Positions 2,706 through 21,236 of a stretch of DNA of 64,000 nt are shown in pieces. The translations under genes and the position numbers were made by a program. The notes beneath the pieces are model-generated. The model did not search any database. It was not told the origin of the DNA and was given only the letters and a program-made list of their open reading frames with translations. The stretch lies in contig OX345636.1 of the NCBI GenBank assembly GCA_947044365.1, forward strand, positions 50,834,746-50,898,745, given 5' to 3'. Positions within the stretch are counted from its first letter, which is position 1; the number at the start of each line of letters is the position of its first letter. This DNA is from Petrosia ficiformis (Eukaryota; Porifera; Demospongiae; Haplosclerida; Petrosiidae).

Positions 2706-4045
2706 ACTAGTACATAGAACTCGAAGTGCATATACACTCTTAAATTCTTAATATATATTTAGATATTTACTGTAACTGATCTCTCAGTTATAAGTCAATG
2801 TACATACACCACCTTAATACTTATTTAATAATAATACATTTCACACTAAAAAGTATGTATCAAGTATTTATCAGTGCCTTGTAATACCCTATATATAACT
2901 ATAGCTACAACAGAGATTCATCTACATGTGAATTATACAGAATGTAGACAGCAGTCCACACAACTATAAAGTACTGTTTCTCAGTCATAATAATGTGATT
3001 GGATATAACAAAAATGATAATTTCTATTATTTTGGTGAAATTGTAGTTGAAGTAGTGTTCAATTATAAATATATACATATTTTTTTTATGCTATCAATAG
3101 ACCCACCAACACTGATAATATTATCTTTCCATGATTGCTGCATGAGGATTGCTATAATTATATGTTACTTGTTTTGCTTTCTTGTATGCCTTAAAGATGC
3201 TATTATGTATTTCCATTATGATCTCAATTCATTGTCCAGTTACTATTGATTATGTCACTCAACTATATATTTTACTCAATAATTGTTCCACTATTGTTAT
3301 CTCATAGTATAACTTCAAAATTGTCTGACAAATAACCAAAATTATAACACAATTTTGATATGCTTTCATTATTGTATAATATTTTTTTACTACTTACGTG
3401 AACATAAGTATGATTTTAATAATACATAATCCATGAGTTTGATTTCCTTGTAAATTGGGATAATGATATAATTATATATAGTAAGGCTTATATATAATTA
3501 TAATTATTCAAAACAGCTTTATTATTATACGTATACAGTTCAAAGGAAGGTAGTTAATATATGATTAAGGATTTTCCTCTTGTAATCTATCCTGAACTCA
3601 AGTTAATAGGGGTCAAAGTACCATCCTGCTTTCATATGCAAATCATATAGTACACGTACTAGGCCACATAATGTATCTCGAGCTCACTTCAGCATTACCT
3701 TCATTATTATAATTAACTCTGGTATGTCCAGTATAAATATGACACGTAATATTATAATTATAACACTACAATTATTTATAATTTTATGTCCTTTTAAATC
3801 TATTCATCTGTAGATTTGTTATTCAAATTCCAGCATGCAACTGCATAAGATTTATACATTCATTCATTTAAACTACTGAGAGTGAAATATGATGACAATT
3901 ATATCTTCAAGATATATATGCTCAATAAATTACATTTTAGTAGAGATATACTTTATATTGATATGATATTTGATTTCAAGAGCATAATCATTGGAAGTGA
4001 TTATATATATGTATAACTATGTAAGATTGCTGCTATATAGATGTT

Positions 4046-9320: not shown

Positions 9321-9614
9321 CTTTAGTTATATCCCTGTGGTTTGTTTAATGAATTTTAAGCCACAATGCCTCCTCTCATCAAACGGTTATGGTTATGACC
9401 CCAAACAGTGATCAAATAACACAAATTATTTATGCTTAGGATATTCATGATTCAGTTTTAAACATTTTGCCCTTGGGTGCTATGTGCCCTTGGCCTCATA
9501 CTTGAGATAACTACATAATTTTACTTTTAGTGTATTATGAATTAATTCCATCACTTTAATTTGAAATTAATGAAAGAGGGCATTCTAATATGAGATTACT
9601 TCCTGCATGAGTAA

Positions 9615-9730
9615 GACTGCACAGGATATACATGATTCACCTTTAAACTTTGTCTGCATGGTGGATGGTTCTTAAACCATCCACCAGACAAAGTTTAAAG
9701 GTGAATCATGTATATCCTGTGCATGCAGTC
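9615..9730. repeat. Near-perfect promoter hairpin upstream of gene A1
   Basis: The left arm runs from GACTGCACAGGATATACATG to GGTGGATGGTT and the right arm returns as AACCATCCACC and so on to the reverse complement, ending GCAGTC. Arms are about 50 bases and the loop is only a few bases. It lies 47 bases before the TATA box. The same hairpin precedes A2; A3 has only one arm. Confidence 0.85.
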
Positions 9731-9757
9731 TTCAGTTAATTTCCTGCATTGCTAGAA

Positions 9758-9784
9758 TAGGGCTTCTGTTCAGTAGTATAAATA
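9758..9784 (+). promoter_or_regulatory. Type A promoter TATA box
   Basis: TATAAATA at 9777-9784, preceded by AGGGCTTCTGTTCAGTAG, 92 bases before the start codon. The block is shared with A2 and A3, and its core GCTTCTRTTCA is shared with the type B promoters. Confidence 0.6.
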
Positions 9785-9875
9785 TGACAGACAAATCTAA
9801 ACTCGATTCATAAACTCAAGTACTACATTTTGTATTAACTATATAGATACTAAATCAAGGCAAGTATAATATACT

Positions 9876-10502: not shown

Positions 10503-10927
10503 TATGTATAATATAATATATAGTTGTCTAAACATCATAGTATGTTAATGTTAATGTTAATTAGATTAATATTATAAAAATTTATAATTGCATTCTTTGA
10601 AATCAATTACAGGAATCACAAGGAAATGGAGTATCATTTCATAGAGAGACAACTACCTCAAGCTCCCAACACAATGTCCTCCTCGCCACAATCCATAATG
10701 GAGATAAATATTATCTTTTGGCATCTTCTAATCAAACTGTATCATTTGTTGATGAGGCAGACAAGACAGCAAAAGAACAAAATCAACAAAGTAATCCTCA
10801 AGCATGGAAAGAGCTACTCTTTAACATTATTAGTGTTGATAAGAGTACTGTAAATACTCCATTCCTACTATCAAGTGCATCAAATGCTGTTAAAGCTACT
10901 TCACCTATAGCTTTGTCAAAATTGTAG
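9876..10927 (+). CDS. Tandem family protein, type A, copy 1 (204 aa)
   Basis: Four exons, 9876-9906, 9968-10117, 10221-10339 and 10613-10927. The first intron is only 61 bases; reading through it gives a stop, so splicing is required. Compared with type B the protein has an extra N-terminal exon and the segment GDKSIDIIPDG, and a longer C-terminus ending SPIALSKL. Shared blocks are FVHCQGTGYYLTYLPF, SNGTGTH, YEELF, LLATIHNGDKYYLLAS, SVDKS. It has no signal peptide or membrane span. The start chosen is the first of two in-frame ATGs (MSERM). The third intron carries a long AT run (10430-10497). Function unknown; this is the same family as the type B genes. Confidence 0.85.
10430..10497. repeat. 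AT microsatellite in an intron
   Basis: An almost pure run of TA repeats in the third intron of the type A gene. The equivalent introns of A2 and A3 are AT-rich but much less regular. Confidence 0.9.
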
Positions 10928-11460
10928 ACATAATTATTGTGAGAATGTTGCACTTAATTGCAAAACTATATGTATATAATTATATTGATAGAATCGTTAC
11001 ACGTATCTAATTAGCAAGTTATTCTATTTATTATAATATTCCTCTATTTCTGCTATATTTTTTTTTGCTATTTAATTAATTATTTTATGATGGGTGTAGT
11101 CAATTATATTAATTGCTTTTGGCTATAAAATAATGACACTAAATGTGGGCGTTGCCACTGACATTTGCACTTTAATATGTTAAAACACTCGCCCTGCTAA
11201 TTTCCTTAGCTTTCTAAGCATGGTTTTTGCATCTATGGCTTTCTTTGAAGGTCTTCTGTAGAACTAAAAGGCATTTTTATTTAAAATGTGGAAGTTATAC
11301 AAGCGATAAATTTTCAAAGCCTTGCTGTCTTCCTGCCACGTACATTTTACATACATTTTATATAGATGGTTTTACTTAGTGAAAGCAAGAATTCTGAGCT
11401 TTACAAATGTGAGAGTTACATTTCAGTAATAATTATTAGTACCCTCTGCCAACACATTTA
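10928..11460 (+). other. 3' flank shared by type A genes
   Basis: This stretch resembles 20369-20830, 37940-38280 and, for its start, 40848-41000: AATTATTGTGAGAATGTT after the stop, then TATCTAATTAGCAA and CTATTTCTGCTATATTT. It contains GGCTATAAAATAATGAC but no gene of its own. Confidence 0.7.
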
Positions 11461-11469
11461 TTTAGTCAT

Positions 11470-11690
11470 TTGTGTGTCATATTTATACTACTGAACAGAA
11501 GCCCTATTCTGGCAATGCAAGAAATTAACGGGATATTCCCAAGCCTTTATTTAACACCAACCGGACGAAGTTTAAACATGAATCATGTATATCCTGTGCA
11601 GTCATACCCATGCAGGAAAGAATCTCATAGTAGAATGTCCTCTTTCATTAATTTAAATTTAAAGTAATGGTTTCATAATACATTAATTAT
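11470..11690 (-). promoter_or_regulatory. Orphan type A promoter in reverse orientation
   Basis: On the minus strand this is nearly the same as 39585-39794, the promoter region of A3, including the TATA box (11480-11487) and the GCTTCTGTTCAG block. No type A gene follows on the minus strand; the next thing to the left is the 3' end of gene A1. If active it would transcribe A1 in antisense. Confidence 0.6.
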
Positions 11691-11700
11691 TAGGTAGCTA

Positions 11701-12108
11701 GAGTAAGCGACCAATAATCGGACGAACTCATTTTCGGACAGTAGTATTTCTTTAGGACTATGTGCTAGCCGTCTGAAACTTCACAGCATAGTAGTGTCGT
11801 CTTAGTCCTATTTGCTTGCCAAATGAGAGCTTCGAATGTCCACTTATTAAAAAGTTATGTGATGCTAAACGAGCTGTCCGAAAACCGCATATTTCAGACA
11901 AATTTCTCAATCTCCGGACGATGCTTAAACAACAAAGAATGAAAAGAGGAATCTCGAAATTACTTTGCTATGATTGTACCTCTATTGTTTATTCAAGGAA
12001 TCTTTAGGTCTTTGTTTATGAAAGTCAGCATCACTTCACAGAAAAAAAAATACTCGAGAGTTGACAGTGTAATTGAAGTCCGGACATATCCGGATACTTC
12101 CGTTTATT
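11701..12108 (+). repeat. Left terminal inverted repeat of the transposon
   Basis: It matches the reverse complement of 18912-19320 with scattered substitutions and small indels. CGGAC/GTCCG occurs repeatedly (for example ATCGGACGAAC, TTTTCGGACAG, CTGTCCGAAAACCGC, GTCCGGACATATCCGG), so these could be repeated transposase-binding sites. Confidence 0.9.
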
Positions 12109-12223
12109 GGAAATTAGAACAAGAAATAATACCACACCCCTTAATTAAAACAAAAAAAAAAAAAAAGACTTAAAAACATTCAACATTGTTTCATTACATC
12201 AACAAAAAACTGTAACAGTTGAT

Positions 12224-15200
12224 TCATACTGTTTTGCTTCCACGGGCTGGTGGAGTAAACTCCAGTGGTTTACTCACTATTTCAAGTCCTCTACCTTGAC
12301 AAATGGAACAGGTCCAACTTTCAGGAATAACTCTATTGATGCCAGCACAAGAAAAATGGAACCATTTCTTACAGTGGTCACAAGATATCATGTTTAAATC
12401 ATACATTTCTGGCATGTTGCAGAAACAGTATCTTTTAATTTCAATAACTTTAGATTTGGACAGAGGAACTTGTTTATGAGTTGAAGGAAATCTTTTTAGG
12501 ACACCATAGGTTAGACACTTGTGTAAGTGTTTACGCATTTTACCCTGATCAAATTGTATTGGCATCCGACCTTCGCATATTTCAAATGCAAAGGCAATTG
12601 AAAATAATCCACAGTCTAACATGCCACTTTGTTGTTGCACACCCATTTTGTGAATTTTCAATATGGCAGAATCATCTCGAAATATTGCAGCAATCTGCAA
12701 AATCAGGTCACGTCCTAGTGTCATTGAACTGGCAAGACTATCTAGAAGATCAATCCTGCCAGCTTCTTCAGTAGAAGACACACACACCCAATGATGAGAT
12801 GAACCTGAGAATGAGTTTGATAACTGAAATTAACGGAAATGAATATTCAGTTACAGTACACACTCATAATTAAGGTGTGGTTAGTGGTGAACAAGTATAA
12901 CTTTTGAATGCTAATGAAAATCTCCATATTTACAAGTACATGTACACATGACTACATGTACTCTATGTCATCTCAGCATCAAAAGCAACCTGCTTCTAAT
13001 AATGGCAGGTAACACTCACAATGTCTCACATACAAAAATTGAAGTAATCCTCTGCCTAAATGAATTAATCATCTGTTATTCAGTCATTTACATGTATATA
13101 CATGCTAACTAAATGTACATGGCTATTAGAAATTAATTGCTGGTTGTAAGGATGCATTAACAGATAAAATTATAATTATCATTTGTATGTTCAGTTTACA
13201 GTCCAATACTCAAAATATCATGTTGAGCATACACATGCATTCTGTACTGAGTGTACTATTTCGATTATAATTGGCTGCAAAGCAAGAGGATTTCAATAAA
13301 TCTGAGCAGAGTGCCCCACCCTGATCCAGCATAAATATAACTATTATGTCAATCAAAAAAAAACATTTCCTTTTTTCGGACATACATGACATTGCTAGTC
13401 ATTATTATAACATCAATTAGCTTTACCTGTGTGTAAAATCTGAACACCTTTATTAATAGGTGAGAACTTGAGATAAGTACTTAGAGTAGTGTCTTGAAAA
13501 CCTTTAAGATGTTGAAATTGTTTAGCCAAAAGTAGTTGAGCTGCATTGATTATTGAGGAATTCAATTCTCTTCCTGAGATCAATATATCACTATCAGCTG
13601 TAGTCAGCTTAAGCTTCTCATTCCACCACTTTGAAACAACCACTTCACAGTCATCTATTAAAACAAATACTGCAATAATGCACCCTTGCCACATTTACAC
13701 ATTTTTCTCAATTTACAAACATGCACACAATTAAAATTATATAAACATTTGCAGACAAAATGTAATAATTAATATGGCATATATTTCACTCTGTATTGTT
13801 CCTGAGGCCTCCTGGTATAATAAGACATCAGAGAAGCAAGTAGTACATAATTAATTAAGCTTGAAAATAACATGACATCCAATAAGTGACTGATGATATA
13901 GAAAATCTTAAGATCCAGTTGATTTTCCAGCAAAAGTACATACTAGGTTTAAACAAGTAAGTTTCCATGATTTACATGTGTAATTGTTACCACATCTTCT
14001 CAAGGTCAGGAAAATATTACTGTGCATGAGTTGTAAAAATTCCCATATCCTTATGACCAAAATGTTTTTAGCAACAGCCAATTGTTATTTTTCGTCCTTG
14101 CACTTGTATGATTTGAGTATGAATACATGTAGCTCTTAAAAAGTATTAATGCTCATAGTATACAGAGACAATTAAACAGTGGTAAGGTATACTTCTTACA
14201 GTATACAATTTACTGACACAAACAATGACAGTTTCAAACAGTGACTACTAACCAGCGATTGTAGAGAACTTTACAATCTTTTCTTTAACTTGAGGTTGTT
14301 TGTCACACACTAATAATAATAACAGTTATTAATAATTCAATCACAATCATCTCACTTACCAGGTTCTTTTAATTCTTTTCTTCTACGAGTGACTATAGAT
14401 GACTTTACTATGTTCCCTTTAACTTGAGGTTCTTTGTTACAACCTAATAATAATAACACATATTAATACTTCAAATGTGAGTACTTTCACTTACCAGGTT
14501 CTTTTAAATCTTTTCTTCCACTAGTAACTACAGATGATTTTAATATGTTCCCTTTAACTCGAGGTTCTTTGTCAAACAAAAACAGGTATTAATAATTCAA
14601 ATTCAAATTCAAATCATATGACCTACCAGGTTCTTTTAAATCTTTTCTTCCACGAGTGACTATAGACGACTTTACTATGCTCCCTCTAACTTGAGGTTCT
14701 TTGTCACACCCTAATAATACTAACAAAAATTAATACTTTAAATTTCAACACTGTCACTTACCAGGTTCTTTTAAATCTTGTCTTCCACGAGCAATTGTAG
14801 ACGACTTTACTATGTTCCCTTTAACTTGAGGTTCTTTGTCACACCCTAATAATACTAACAAAAATTAATACTTTAAATTTCAACACTGTCACTTACCAGG
14901 TTCTTTTAAATCTTGTCTTCCACGAGTAATTATAGACGACTTTACTATGTTCCCTTTAACTTGAGGTTCTTTGTCACAACCTAATAATAATAACACATAT
15001 TAATACTTCAAATGTGAGTACTTTCACTTACCAGGTTCTTTTAAATCTTTGCTTCCACTAGTAACTACAGATGATTTTAATATGTTCCCTTTAACTCGAG
15101 GTTCTTTGTCAAACAAAAACAGGTATTAATAATTCAAATTCAAATTCAAATCATATGACCTACCAGGTTCTTTTAAATCTTTTCTTCCACGAGTGACTAT

Positions 15201-17690
15201 AGACGACTTTACTATGCTCCCTCTAACTTGAGGTTCTTTGTCACACCCTAATAATACTAACAAAAATTAATACTTTAAATTTCAACACTGTCACTTACCA
15301 GGTTCTTTTAAATCTTGTCTTCCACGAGTAATTATAGACGACTTTACTATGTTCCCTTTAACTTGAGGTTCTTTGTCACAACCTAATAATAATAACACAT
15401 ATTAATACTTCAAATTTGAGTACTTTCACTTACCAGGTTCTTTTAATTCTTTTCTTCCACGAGTAATTATAGATGACTTTACTATGTTCCCTTTACCTTG
15501 AAGTTCTTTGTCATACCCTAATTAAGTTATTAGAATTTGAAGTACATGTATTAATATATCATTATTAATAACACATAGTAATACTTCAAATTCCAATACT
15601 GTATCTTACAAGGTTCTTTTAAATCTTTTCTTCCATCATTAACCATAGGCAACTTTACAGTGTTCCCTTTCTCTTCAACAAGTGGTTCTTTGTCATATTA
15701 ATAATAACATAATATAATTCAAATTCCAATTATCTCACTTACTAGGCTCTTTTAAATCTTTTCTTCCACGAGTAATTATAGACGACTTTACTATGTTCCC
15801 ATTAACCTGAGGTTCTTTATTACACACTAATAATAATAACTCATATTAATACTTAAAATTCCAACAGTCTCACTTACCAGGTTCTTTACACAATTTATCC
15901 TTCATTCTTTGTTTTTCTTTCTCATATTCCCTTTTTTGGGCATTTTCTTCTCTTAATCTTTTCCGCTCTTCCTTCTTCATTGCTTCTTCTTCCTTCTTTT
16001 CTTCCCTCATTCTTCTCCTTTCTTCTTTCTGAAATGTTTCTTCCTGCTTTTTCTTAGCATTTTCTTCCTTCATTCTTTTTCGCTCCTCTTTCTTCCATGC
16101 TTCTTCTTCCTTTTTCTTTTCACGCTCTTCAAGTATTTGTAAACTTTCTATACTAGTTAAAACCTTACCTGGGCATTTAGTATGCTTGGTAGGCAGTTGA
16201 CTTGGAGGTGTAGGAATAACAAAAAACTTGCTTATGCTAGTACAATTATGAAATGGCATAATAAACTGATCTTCGCTACGACTATCATCCGAAGTTTCAA
16301 GAAACGTTTCTTCTAAAACAGATGAGCTTTGATGTGATAAAGGACTGTCAGGAACTGGATAATGCTTTGAGGGTTTTGGACTATACAGTGGAATGTAGGC
16401 TAGTCCAGATGTTTTAACTACATTCTCTGGCTGAAAATGCATGTATGTAGTGTCTTCTTGTATTGGAATTTGAACTATTGTTCTGTCAAAAGGACAGACA
16501 CCAGTAGTTTTAAAACCAGCTGCAATGTTCTTCATTGTCATTGATTTATACCAGGCCTCAGAAAAGAGGTAACAAAAATCGTAACGCGTTACACATCTTC
16601 CAGGGTTTTTTACTATAAAATTATGACAGGCTTCTTTCCAGGAATACTTAAGGGGAGAAAATGGTCCTTTATCAAGAGGCTGGGTGAGATGTGTAGTATT
16701 TGGTGGAAGTGCAAATATAATAATTTTTTGTGCAGCAGCAGCACGAATCACTTCAGGACAGTAATGACTAGAATGACCATCTAACAATAGTAAAAGTGGA
16801 CGTGACGAAGGAGCATAGGGTAAGAAGTGATTAAAAAACCAGTCAGAAAAGAGAGACCTGTCAATCCACCCCTTCCTGGATAAACCATAAAGGGTTCCTG
16901 GTACTTCCCCAATGGTCAATTGAGGGTTAAGAGTCTTTCTGTCGAAGATAACAAAAGGTGGAATTACGTATCCAGCTGCATTAGCACAAACTAATACCGT
17001 AATTTGTGATTTAGTATCACTTGTCAAATGAGAAGGTTGTTTCAATCCTTTTTTAGAAATAACTTTAGGTGCTTTTGGACTAAGTGGAAAGCCTGTTTCA
17101 TCACAATTAAAGATGTTACTAGGTTGGTTAAAAATACCATTGGCTTCAAGTGTCTCCTGTAGCATATCAAAGTAGTTTTCTAACATGGTATAGTCTGTTG
17201 CCATTGCTCTTGCCAATGATAATGGTACTGCTGTTCGTAAAGTTAAAGACGGATGCCTTATACAGAATCTTTCCCACCAACCATTTGAGACAATAGTATC
17301 AATACCTTTGGAATTTAAAATTTGCTGCACAAGGCTTAGTACATGCTTACGAGTGTATGGATATCCTATTGTAGCACTCTTGTCTAGAAAACTGACCAAT
17401 TCTTCCTCTTCTTCAATAGTAAGGTAAGGTTTGGGGCCAGACTTTGATCCCATTTGATGCTTTCCCACATAATGATCATGTAGAGTTGAACGTGGGACAC
17501 CATACATCTCAGATACCTGCCTTAGTGATTTCCCTTGTTCAACAGCAATAACTGCCTTCTCCAGACATATCTGCTCATACTTTCTATAGTTTCCACGGCT
17601 GTTTGGTGTAGGGTTAAGGGTGGGAGTAGGAGTGGTAGATCGAGAATGAATGATCCGTTGATGCAGTGAAGGATAGCCATATGCATACAT
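12224..17690 (-). CDS. Pogo-type transposase fused to repeat array, Ulp1 protease and PHD finger (about 1,190 aa)
   Basis: Fifteen exons are inferred on the minus strand: 17690-15878, twelve small exons from 15826 to 14253, 13654-13427 and 12804-12224. Every junction keeps the same phase and the spliced length is 3,573 bases, exactly divisible by three. Residues about 35-75 form a psq-type helix-turn-helix (SLRQVSEMYGVPRSTLHDH) and 90-150 a CENP-B-like second one. The DDE_1 catalytic core shows FNCDETGF (D197), LLLLDGHSSHY (D304) and QPLDKGPF (D340), that is DD35D. Residues about 525-600 are a Lys/Glu coiled coil. Residues 605-921 are twelve KEPQVKGN-type repeats. A C48 (Ulp1/SENP) protease follows with SSIINAAQLLL, HHW (H1002), LLDSL (D1019) and QSGMLDCG (Q1056, C1062). 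A C4HC3 PHD finger is at 1124-1166 (CFC, CDHC, HFSC, WTCSIC). The DDE part should cut and move the element; the protease may remove SUMO; the PHD may bind histone tails. Two separate genes with coincidentally matching phase is the alternative. Confidence 0.8.
14253..15826 (-). repeat. Tandem array of twelve micro-exons (about 135-bp unit)
   Basis: Exons in plus coordinates: 14253-14309, 14360-14443, 14495-14566, 14627-14710, 14762-14845, 14897-14980, 15032-15103, 15164-15247, 15299-15382, 15434-15517, 15610-15687, 15743-15826. Most are 84 bases (28 codons), with introns of about 50 bases. Each encodes a version of DKEPQVKGNIVKSSIITRGR plus KDLKEP. Units 14360-14845 and 14897-15382 match with a constant 537-base offset, a recent four-exon duplication. 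Three units (ending 14566, 15103, 15687) lack the usual TAG acceptor but have an in-frame AAAG one 10-11 bases further in. Confidence 0.85.
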
Positions 17691-18911
17691 CTGTGAACAA
17701 TTATTTAAAAGATGTTATTAAAAATGATTATATATCAGTCAATCAAACATACATGTATATACATTTCATAGAGGGGGGTGGGTAGGGTGTGGTTGGGATT
17801 CTCCACAAAGTTAATATTATAAGGCAGCTGTTAAACCATCATGTTTTTGAATATTTACACATCAGCTATAGGCTCCAGAAGCCACCACAAGAAACCCTTG
17901 AATTAAAACTTTTCATGGTGGGGCATAGCCCCTATGATAATTCACCTATGCAAATCTTCTGTTACATATATTTCACTTATTTCCCTCAAATATACATGTA
18001 TATACATGTGTGTGTGTGTGTGTGTGTGTGTATAATTATATATACACACACATGGTATATAATTATATTATATATAATTATATACCATGATTGCTGAAGT
18101 CAACTATTGAAAACTCAAGTGGTATAGTCAGCATATACCACCTGTGAAACCACAAGAGGTGTATTTGAGACTGCAACAAGGTGTAAATGAGACCACAGGT
18201 GTATATCAGACTGCAAGGAGTTGTATTTATGCAGAATTTAATAATAAAATCATATTATTATGTGATATGTCATTTATAGCCTGTGGATGTAACACCATCA
18301 TTATAAACCTCGAATCAAAGCAAGTTGATATACAAAATATAAACCTGGTAAAAATAATAATCATGTTTGCAACAATTAAATACCCATCTGTAGTTAATTA
18401 GAAGACTACATGGGTATAAGCACACGGTAGGTGAAATAGAATAAAAGATGCAATAATAGTGAGTCTTTTTCTAACTTTGCGCAAGTAATTATTACATGTA
18501 TTAACTGATACATTGATGAACATGAATTTGTAAGCATTTGCATATCTGAATAAAGAAGGGAGGGAGGGTTGGCCCGGATCCCACCAAAATATCATTAAAC
18601 CACATTTCCAGTTCCTAAGACCAAATGGTCCTGACATCAGAGCATATGTTAGTAGTTAAGATTGTTAAATAATTTTCATAACACTAGTCAACTCAAAAAA
18701 AGAGACACTGACAAGCATACATGCCCGGATTTAAATAGTAGGAAGGTAAAATCAATACATGGTTAGAGAATGCAGAGACCCATCGGTTGACTATAAATAC
18801 TCCCAAACATAATACAATGTACAAAATAAATTATTATAATTATTTATATATCATACCTTATCAAAAAAAAAAACAACCAACTTGAACAGAGAAGATTACC
18901 ACGAGATCACA

Positions 18912-19320
18912 AATAAACGGAAGTATACAATATGTGTCCGGAGTTCAATTGTATTAAAGCAACTGACATAGCCTTTGGCTTCGAAGTGATACCGAACGTT
19001 CATAACTTTAAGACCTGAAGATTAGTTGAATTACCAATAGAGGTACAATAATAATAAAGTTGTTTCAAGATTCCTCTTTTCATTCTTTGTTGTTAAGTAG
19101 AGTCCGAATATTGAGAAATTTGTCTGAAATATGCGGTTTTCGGACAACTTGTTTAGCATCACATAACTTTTTAATACTTCGACATTGGAGACTATCCTTT
19201 GGTAAGCAAATAGGAGACAGAAGATACCACTATCCAGTAAAGTTTCAGACAGCTAGCACATAGTTCTACAGAAATACAAGTGTCCGAAAATTGGTTCGTC
19301 CGATAATTGGTCGCTTACTC
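18912..19320 (-). repeat. Right terminal inverted repeat of the transposon
   Basis: Reverse complement of 11701-12108 with scattered changes; it ends GGTCGCTTACTC next to the TA target duplicate. The CGGAC motifs occur at the same relative places as in the left repeat. Confidence 0.9.
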
Positions 19321-19439
19321 TATATCTTGAGTACAAGGGATGTATCCAGTTTACATCTTGAGGTCCAACGGTGTTTGTGCCTATGGGTCGAATGCTTTAA
19401 ACTGGATAATATCCTGAGAATGAGGGATATTCGACCATT

Positions 19440-20340: not shown

Positions 20341-20368
20341 TGACCTATAGCTTTGTCAAAATTGTAGA
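20341..20368 (+). pseudogene. Orphan last codons of a type A gene
   Basis: ACCTATAGCTTTGTCAAAAT and the following TTGTAG equal the final codons (PIALSKL and stop) of the type A genes, with no upstream exon: sequence to the left belongs to the inverted block. It marks a rearrangement breakpoint at about 20340. Confidence 0.75.
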
Positions 20369-21236
20369 AATAATTATTGTGAGAATGTTAGAAAACTTTT
20401 TAATATATTGATAGAATAATAATTATTTATACTGTTATATCGTTACAGGTATCTAATTAGCAATTTATTCTAATATTCCCCTATTTCTGCTATATTTACA
20501 ACAAAAATTTTGGAAATGTTTTTCATGTTATTTATTTATTTCATAATGGGGTGTGGTAAATAAAGACACAAATGTGTGGCGTTGCCAATGACTTTTGCAC
20601 TTTTAAACACTCGCCCTGCTAATTTCCTTTAGCTTTCGAAGCATGCTTTTTGCATCTATGACTTTCTTTGAAGGTCATCTGTAGAACTTAAATAAGTCAA
20701 AAGGCATTGTTATTTAAAATGTGGAAGTTTACTTAGAGAATGCAAGAATACTGAGCTTTACAAATTGAGAGCTACATTTCAGTAATTTAATAATTATTAG
20801 TACTCTCTGCCCACTAATTTTTTGCATAATTAGTTTAAATTATGAATTGGATGTAAATAATATTTTTGAATTATACCACGACCAGTTAGTTGTTGTTTCG
20901 ATGCAGATATGAACCGGATACGGACTATGTTCCACTACACAATATACACAGCAGCAGAAGCCCCATGAAAAAACTATTGTTTTTTCATGGGGTCCTGCTG
21001 ACAGCAGATATTGTTTCACAGCGTTTCCTCTTTCTGCTGGTAGTTTTATGGACTCCTGGTAATATAATTTAATTTCTAGCTATACATCCACCACAAAATT
21101 GTGTTGTACAGTATTATAGAAGCAAATTTATAATAATTATGATACCAGCGATTTGGCAAAGGCCTTTACACAGGCTTAATGTACAAACACCATAAACTCA
21201 TTTGGTGCAGTGCTTAATGAAATACTATTAAAGTGA
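20369..21236 (+). other. Type A 3' flank with hairpin
   Basis: Matches 37940-38740. It includes a hairpin at 20952-21000 (CAGCAGAAGCCCCATGAAAA against TTTTCATGGGG and CTGCTG), also present but less perfect at 38452-38500. No gene is seen. Confidence 0.7.

What the first reader, a model, noticed from the sequence alone, without database searches (positions are those of the whole stretch)
11701..19320. Pogo-type transposon whose single gene appears to fuse a DD35D transposase, a micro-exon repeat array, a SUMO protease and a PHD finger
Seen: TA-flanked element with about 408-bp inverted ends, and 15 minus-strand exons whose phases all agree, for 3,573 coding bases. The transposase triad (D197, D304, D340), the C48 residues (H1002, D1019, Q1056, C1062) and a C4HC3 PHD finger are all intact. 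Known: Ulp1-like proteases occur in some other transposon superfamilies, and pogo transposases normally have only DNA-binding, DDE and tail regions. Inference: the element could remove SUMO from host factors and read chromatin marks to choose or protect its sites. I do not know of a described pogo element with this set.
Basis: partly seen in the sequence, partly recalled or inferred. Interest (0 to 1): 0.88.

Follow-up and report, generated by a model that had tools for sequence, protein, structure and literature searches.

The report
Pogo transposon with SUMO-protease/PHD tail
This is a young jumping gene of the pogo group whose single gene joins a cut-and-paste enzyme, a chain of small repeated exons, a protease that looks able to strip SUMO-type tags and a chromatin-reading finger; the same plan recurs in related elements, so it is a real and unusual transposon design.

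Summary
The element at 11701-19320 (408-bp inverted ends, TA duplication) moves as one unit: paralogous empty sites exist for three insertions tested. Of 11 copies examined, 8 carry transposase and C48-PHD sequence (six with damaged transposase) and none transposase alone. It is a lineage trait: 9 of 9 family and 23 of 60 relative transposases have a C48-PHD match downstream on the same strand (0.18 expected); the 11 C48-bearing rows in the tree lie on one side of a well-supported branch; Amphimedon queenslandica has annotated proteins of the same plan (55% identical transposase). A relative's C48 domain is predicted to fold like Ulp1/SENP; the PHD resembles H3K4me3 readers. The underrated part is the array: 10 of 12 examined lineages, with or without C48, carry tandem mini-exon arrays of different sequence at the same place, mostly of the same phase. 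New variant of a known kind: Ulp1+PHD is described in a Ginger1 transposon; my searches found no report in pogo. Expression, protease activity and chromatin targeting remain inferred.

The parts
11699..11700 (.). TA target-site duplication, left
   Evidence: flanks and empty site
19321..19322 (.). TA target-site duplication, right
   Evidence: flanks and empty site
11701..12108 (+). left terminal inverted repeat, 408 bp
   Evidence: alignment to the right end, 81% with gaps
18912..19320 (-). right terminal inverted repeat, 409 bp
15878..17690 (-). exon 1: transposase (HTH_psq about 17564-17460, Tc5-like 17414-17241, DDE_1 17012-16512) and charged coiled-coil-like stretch about 16189-15879 (coiled coil judged by eye); D197, D304, D340
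   Evidence: Pfam; model
14253..15826 (-). tandem mini-exon array: 11 exons of 72-84 nt plus one of 57 nt, all phase 1, unit period about 135 bp
13427..13654 (-). exon 14: N-terminal half of the C48 protease domain
   Evidence: model; no Pfam match of its own; matched in L042, L043, L044 and, within one frame, in L040
12224..12804 (-). exon 15: C-terminal half of C48 (H1002, D1019, Q1056, C1062) and PHD finger (about 12427-12299), stop at 12226-12224
   Evidence: Pfam; model; PDB comparison of the PHD

Best explanation
A young, recently mobile pogo-superfamily DNA transposon (Fot-like domain set, DD35D). SHOWN: the whole 7.6 kb moves as one TA-flanked unit, and the four modules lie in one phase-consistent gene. 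STRONGLY SUPPORTED: the long spliced product (transposase, basic mini-exon linker, Ulp1/SENP-fold protease, PHD) is a real protein, because the same order and exon phase recur in diverged elements and because annotated A. queenslandica isoforms have the same plan and differ only in the number of array units. INFERRED: (1) the transposase core does ordinary cut-and-paste at the inverted ends. (2) Two product classes are made: if the first intron is kept, the frame stops two codons later and gives a 606-aa transposase without the tail; splicing gives the long form with a variable number of linker units. (3) The PHD holds the long form on H3K4me3-type chromatin, and the C48 domain removes SUMO (or NEDD8) from nearby chromatin proteins or from the transposase, lowering SUMO-dependent silencing or easing insertion and repair.
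Against: No transcript evidence from this genome. Substitutions among array units look neutral (12 synonymous against 12.2 expected; pN/pS 0.93), and in five other arrays exons diverge about as much as introns. Copies are too similar for a selection test. In L039 I saw no exon with the C48 His, and 37 of 60 relatives show no C48 match within 8 kb, so the protease is not needed for all spread. Pfam does not call C48 in the A. queenslandica protein P0017 and scores it below cut-off in P0122 (E=0.049), so there it rests on alignment and fold. One of the four PHF2 cage positions (cage recalled, not from a call) is not aromatic in the window. Fold does not separate SUMO from NEDD8 proteases.
Confidence: 0.62

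Rival explanations
1. Two products from two separate genes: a transposase that ends by reading into the first intron (KEPGK stop), and an independent C48-PHD gene downstream, as in transposons with a separate Ulp1 ORF.
For: An in-frame stop lies two codons past the first donor; no RNA data; in L040 the C48-PHD exon is one open frame of 265 codons.
Against: Phase agrees over 15 exons; A. queenslandica sequences join all parts; array exons picked by a fixed score are multiples of three and open in phase 1 in 9 of 10 arrays, which has no reason if they are never spliced in.
Confidence: 0.12
2. The array is an intronic satellite that merely looks like exons; the real gene splices exon 1 straight to the C48 exon, or not at all.
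For: Neutral-looking substitutions among units, exon and intron divergence alike; three window units lack the usual AG; units with a shifted frame occur in L029, L032 and L034.
Against: 61 of 64 window-family units and 88 of 89 units of five other arrays are open in phase 1; 86 of those 89 also keep AG, GT and a length divisible by three; A. queenslandica and Halichondria panicea predicted proteins contain such repeats.
Confidence: 0.12
3. The C48 domain acts on NEDD8, ubiquitin or the element's own polyprotein rather than on SUMO of host factors.
Against: SUMO proteases fill most of the top rows, though the fold cannot decide; I saw no Gly-Gly in the window units that would suggest self-processing (translation).
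Confidence: 0.2
4. Chance nesting of a C48-PHD element inside a pogo element, or a domesticated host gene.
For: C48-PHD matches occur elsewhere in the genome away from scored transposases and the pair occurs in another transposon superfamily.
Against: 8 of 11 copies carry transposase and C48-PHD sequence; empty sites; co-occurrence far above chance; matched distances.
Confidence: 0.01

Closest known systems
pogo superfamily, Fot/Fot-like family (as defined in PMC7386202)
   Same: HTH_psq plus a (weak) Tc5-type DNA-binding match, DDE_1, DD35D, TA duplication
   Different: 7.6 kb against 1.2-5.2 kb, 1,190 aa against 300-977 aa in that survey; 408-bp ends (such lengths reported there only for unclassified insect elements); mini-exon array; C48-PHD tail; the passage seen lists Fot-like elements in protists and algae, not sponges
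Ginger1-9_HM transposon of Hydra (PMC2836005)
   Same: a transposase protein with Ulp1 and PHD at its C-terminus
   Different: Ginger1 has a Gypsy-integrase-type transposase; here the core is DDE_1 with HTH_psq; no mini-exon array appeared in the passages I saw
Amphimedon queenslandica LOC109581489 (annotated, uncharacterized)
   Same: HTH_psq, DDE_1, variable repeat array, C48 residues, PHD; 55% identical transposase
   Different: array unit of unrelated sequence; not known here to lie in an intact transposon
Ulp1-bearing Mutator elements of plants and animals (named in PMC2836005)
   Same: transposon-borne Ulp1 protease
   Different: different transposase superfamily

Membership tests
pogo superfamily (Fot/Fot-like domain set) | DDE_1 catalytic domain with 35 residues between the second and third D | tested here: met
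   Pfam 84.6 bits; D304 and D340
pogo superfamily (Fot/Fot-like domain set) | HTH_psq DNA-binding motif | tested here: met
   21.9 bits, cut-off 20.4
pogo superfamily (Fot/Fot-like domain set) | HTH_Tnp_Tc5 motif | tested here: inconclusive
   18.3 bits, cut-off 22.2
pogo superfamily (Fot/Fot-like domain set) | TA target-site duplication and terminal inverted repeats | tested here: met
pogo superfamily (Fot/Fot-like domain set) | position inside the pogo clade in a tree with reference elements | not tested
   no labelled reference transposases were at hand
Peptidase_C48 / Ulp1-SENP | His-Asp-Gln-Cys catalytic set | tested here: met
   H1002, D1019, Q1056, C1062, kept in 8 of 8 sequences compared, window included
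Peptidase_C48 / Ulp1-SENP | Pfam C48 match above cut-off | tested here: met
   window exon 15, 23.7 bits, cut-off 20.7; not reached by relatives P0122 and P0017
Peptidase_C48 / Ulp1-SENP | Ulp1/SENP fold | tested here: met
Peptidase_C48 / Ulp1-SENP | cleavage of SUMO | not testable with these tools
   needs biochemistry; NEDD8 protease ties in fold
PHD finger | C4HC3 ligand set and Pfam cut-off | tested here: met
   C1124, C1126, C1139, C1142, H1147, C1150, C1163, C1166; 30.6 bits, cut-off 24
PHD finger | H3K4me3-reading cage | tested here: inconclusive
   Y1123, a Met and W1145 align with PHF2; fourth cage position is E; cage positions recalled
Ginger1 transposons | integrase-type (rve) core | tested here: not met
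   Pfam scan of exon 1 lists five families, DDE_1 among them and no rve

The most novel reading that the evidence does not exclude
A whole clade of pogo transposons builds its transposase gene around a self-expanding cassette array: satellite-like tandem repeats in which every unit is one phase-1, frame-neutral mini-exon plus its intron. Any number of units, and any skipping pattern, keeps the reading frame, so each element and each splice form has a different basic linker between the catalytic core and a chromatin-reading (and, in one branch, SUMO-removing) tail. Unit sequences turn over between families, while the phase and perhaps a short T/S-R-G-K/R motif are kept.
Probability: 0.5. Interest if true: 0.85.

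Novelty: new variant of a known kind. Interest (0 to 1): 0.72.

Why it matters
If the tail works as its parts suggest, the transposon carries its own tool to undo the SUMO marks that animal hosts use in transposon silencing, and its own reader to reach open chromatin; that can be tested with two point mutants. Separately, the arrays offer a natural system in which tandem duplication adds in-frame exons to one gene, which bears on how repeat proteins and alternative-splicing cassettes arise. The pogo superfamily has given rise to CENP-B and other host genes, so an accessory-domain branch in early animals is of interest for domestication.

Tried and rejected
Selection test among copies: too little divergence (0-3.2% in the two introns compared), uninformative. 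Selection test within the array: neutral-looking, counted against strong constraint. Exon against intron length changes: 7 of 9 exon and 8 of 13 intron changes are multiples of three, no clear contrast. The T..R..K/R pattern in 9 of 9 unit peptides (2.45 expected) was chosen after looking and is only a lead; 'TR' alone is in 7 of 9 (2.1 expected). The idea that three window units without the usual AG must be skipped was dropped, because an in-frame AG lies 6 or 12 nt further in. The idea that the L039/L045 branch has a dead protease was dropped for L045, whose His exon lies upstream; it stands only for L039 as fetched. Host gene or chance nesting: rejected. Papers: pogo+Ulp1+PHD+transposon gave one paper, on Ginger (passages seen); pogo+transposase+sponge+Amphimedon gave three, of which PMC10027918 was seen in passages; pogo/Tigger/DD35D/Passer (listing), of which PMC7386202 was seen in passages plus the whole of section 8 and PMC7325037 was searched for six terms without a hit; Ulp1/SUMO protease/transposase (listing); Amphimedon+microexon+transposon 0; pogo+peptidase C48+transposase 0; mariner/PHD finger/SUMO protease (listing); SUMO and transposon silencing (listing with abstract beginnings); transposase gene/microexon/tandem array (listing of 12 of 189). 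'Not described in pogo' rests on these searches alone; most subscription papers are not in that library.
Full report
WHAT IS THERE. The element spans 11701-19320 of the window, between TA dinucleotides. Its inverted ends align over 408/409 bases at 81%. Pfam gives DDE_1, HTH_psq, Peptidase_C48 and PHD above their cut-offs; the Tc5-type motif is below its cut-off, and exon 14, the first half of the protease, has no Pfam match alone that reaches a cut-off. The genome is 191 Mb in 29 contigs and unnamed. The species-named proteins among the 120 listed relatives of the transposase come from the sponges Amphimedon queenslandica and Halichondria panicea, so a sponge host is likely but is an inference.

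IT MOVES AS ONE UNIT. A search with the left end gives 20 matches, which group into about 12 places. I fetched 10 of them; one 154-bp fragment (C1:16868631) was left. With the window copy that makes 11: 8 (window, L029-L035) carry transposase, array and C48-PHD sequence; L036 has one end and part of C48-PHD; L037 and L038 have only an end; none has transposase alone. A further family member, C1:37280148, with 95% transposase identity and an 85% C48 match downstream, showed no end match and was not fetched. L030 and L031 have identical flanks, L032 and L033 nearly identical ones with L034 close to them, so several are probably duplicated segments rather than separate jumps. The transposase frame is open end to end in the window copy and in L029; the other six have stops, gaps or missing stretches in it. 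L029 has one frame-shifted array unit. Sequences joining the flanks of the window copy, L030 and L029 each find paralogous places without the element. The window and L030 paralogues show a single TA at the junction; the L029 paralogue fetched has TG there.

IT IS A LINEAGE, NOT A ONE-OFF. The transposase has 83 matches in the genome with only 72 of 2,285 candidates scored, and 150 of 275 C48-PHD candidates were scored, so counts are lower bounds. Of 69 transposase places kept, 9 of 9 with 90% identity or more and 23 of 60 with less have a C48-PHD match on the same strand within 8 kb downstream; none has one downstream on the opposite strand; upstream, 2 of the 60 have a same-strand and 1 an opposite-strand match; 0.18 would be expected. 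L040 is a second complete element, about half identical in transposase, with 92% identical inverted ends, TA flanks, its own array and an intact C48-PHD frame. In a tree of 30 transposases (11 C48-bearing: the window, 9 loci and one A. queenslandica protein; 9 C48-lacking loci; 10 other database proteins) the C48-bearing rows fall on one side of a branch with 100/99 support, together with two C48-lacking loci, one of them a near-copy of a C48-bearing family; three changes are needed against 6.9 in shuffles, and 1 of 500 shuffles is as low. One C48-bearing row, L048, has two C48 matches downstream, so its partner is uncertain. The A. queenslandica protein is sister to locus L049 (100/97). C48-PHD distances follow transposase distances (r=0.72; 38 of 40,320 permutations as high; 8 pairs).

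THE SAME PLAN IN AN ANNOTATED GENE. A. queenslandica LOC109581489 (isoforms X6 and X14-X18) has HTH_psq, DDE_1, a repeat array, the C48 residues and PHD; Pfam itself does not call C48 there. The six sequences have identical beginnings and ends and carry 8, 11, 12, 13, 13 or 18 array units by my pattern. They are computed gene models, and reads on near-identical repeats can be misplaced, so unit numbers per isoform should be taken with care.

THE ARRAY. In the window, 11 units of about 135 bp each hold one exon (72-84 nt), followed by a 57-nt exon. Over eight copies, 61 of the 64 units that still have a recognisable donor are open in the predicted phase; 27 of 30 distinct units are open in it, against 0 and 2 in the other two frames. 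Copies differ in unit number. Other lineages have arrays of different sequence at the same place: L040, L042, L043, L045 and, in 5 of 5 C48-lacking relatives fetched, L067-L071 with 15-23 units counted. Of 12 lineages looked at, the two without such an array are L044, with none in the stretch held, and L046, with a 39-bp repeat instead. A fixed splice-site score, simple and written by me, picked an exon divisible by three in 9 of 10 arrays, with phase 1 open in all nine; several picks won by a narrow margin. L042 is the miss, where a manually chosen exon of 72 nt fits. In L067-L071, 86 of 89 units keep AG, GT, a length divisible by three and an open phase 1; boundaries were allowed to shift by up to 8 nt to the nearest AG or GT, for L070 I used a shorter exon than the score had picked, and in L068 a second frame is also open in 15 of 16 units. 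Against coding constraint: substitutions among window units look neutral and exons diverge about as much as introns. Since C48-lacking relatives have it too, the array probably predates the C48 part and marks the wider lineage. The exons are 48-108 nt, longer for the most part than the definitions of micro-exon (up to 30 or 51 nt) in abstracts listed, so 'mini-exon' is the better word.

HOW IT LIKELY WORKS. The transposase part is conventional. An in-frame stop two codons past the first donor means that keeping the first intron gives a plain 606-aa transposase, while splicing adds linker and tail. The tail most likely places the protein at active chromatin and removes SUMO or NEDD8 there. Anti-silencing is my favoured purpose because SUMO takes part in small-RNA-directed transposon silencing in animals (titles and abstract beginnings only). 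That relatives without a detected C48 also have many copies, and that L039 lacks its His exon as fetched, suggests that the protease is an aid rather than a need.

KNOWN AND NEW. Gao et al. 2020 (PMC7386202; passages and section 8) describe pogo elements of 1.2-5.2 kb with transposases of 300-977 aa, and my term search of that main text found no PHD, C48 or protease. Ginger1-9_HM carries Ulp1 and PHD, and that paper already proposed a role of such proteases in transposition (PMC2836005, passages). New here, as far as the searches listed under Tried and rejected reach: the same pair in pogo, its persistence through a clade present in at least two genomes (this one and A. queenslandica), and the mini-exon arrays.

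Noticed in passing
window 10903-11473 and 20343-20834: A series of direct repeats (79-98% identical pieces) at about 9.4 kb spacing brackets the element, as if it had inserted into or beside an older duplicated segment.
   Followed up: no
window 9548-9796 and 11468-11670: Inverted repeats (87-95%) and a perfect 39-bp hairpin (9618-9656/9685-9723) suggest a second, smaller inverted-repeat element next to the left flank; pieces of this flank recur near window 36.6 kb and 39.6 kb.
   Followed up: no
L032, L033, L034 (contig C1 at 63.23 Mb, 0.22 Mb and 0.16 Mb of 63.28 Mb): Copies with near-identical flanks sit near both ends of the largest contig seen, pointing to a duplicated, possibly subtelomeric, segment.
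   Followed up: partly
L067-L071: C48-lacking relatives carry satellite-like arrays of 15-23 mini-exon units right after the transposase; L068 ends in a PHD-like stretch at 3014-3148.
   Followed up: yes
G000 places, e.g. L047: Many C48-PHD matches are not next to a scored pogo transposase; L047 has a 494-aa open frame. The cassette may sit in other elements or beside unscored pogo copies.
   Followed up: no
P0034 (A. queenslandica, UniRef): A related transposase is followed by what look like Kelch repeats (Pfam labels, their meaning recalled) in one predicted protein, possibly another fusion or a gene-model artefact.
   Followed up: no
P0136 (Daphnia magna, 453 aa): A crustacean protein with a C48-PHD pair (both Pfam matches below cut-off), suggesting that the cassette is not confined to sponges.
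   Followed up: no
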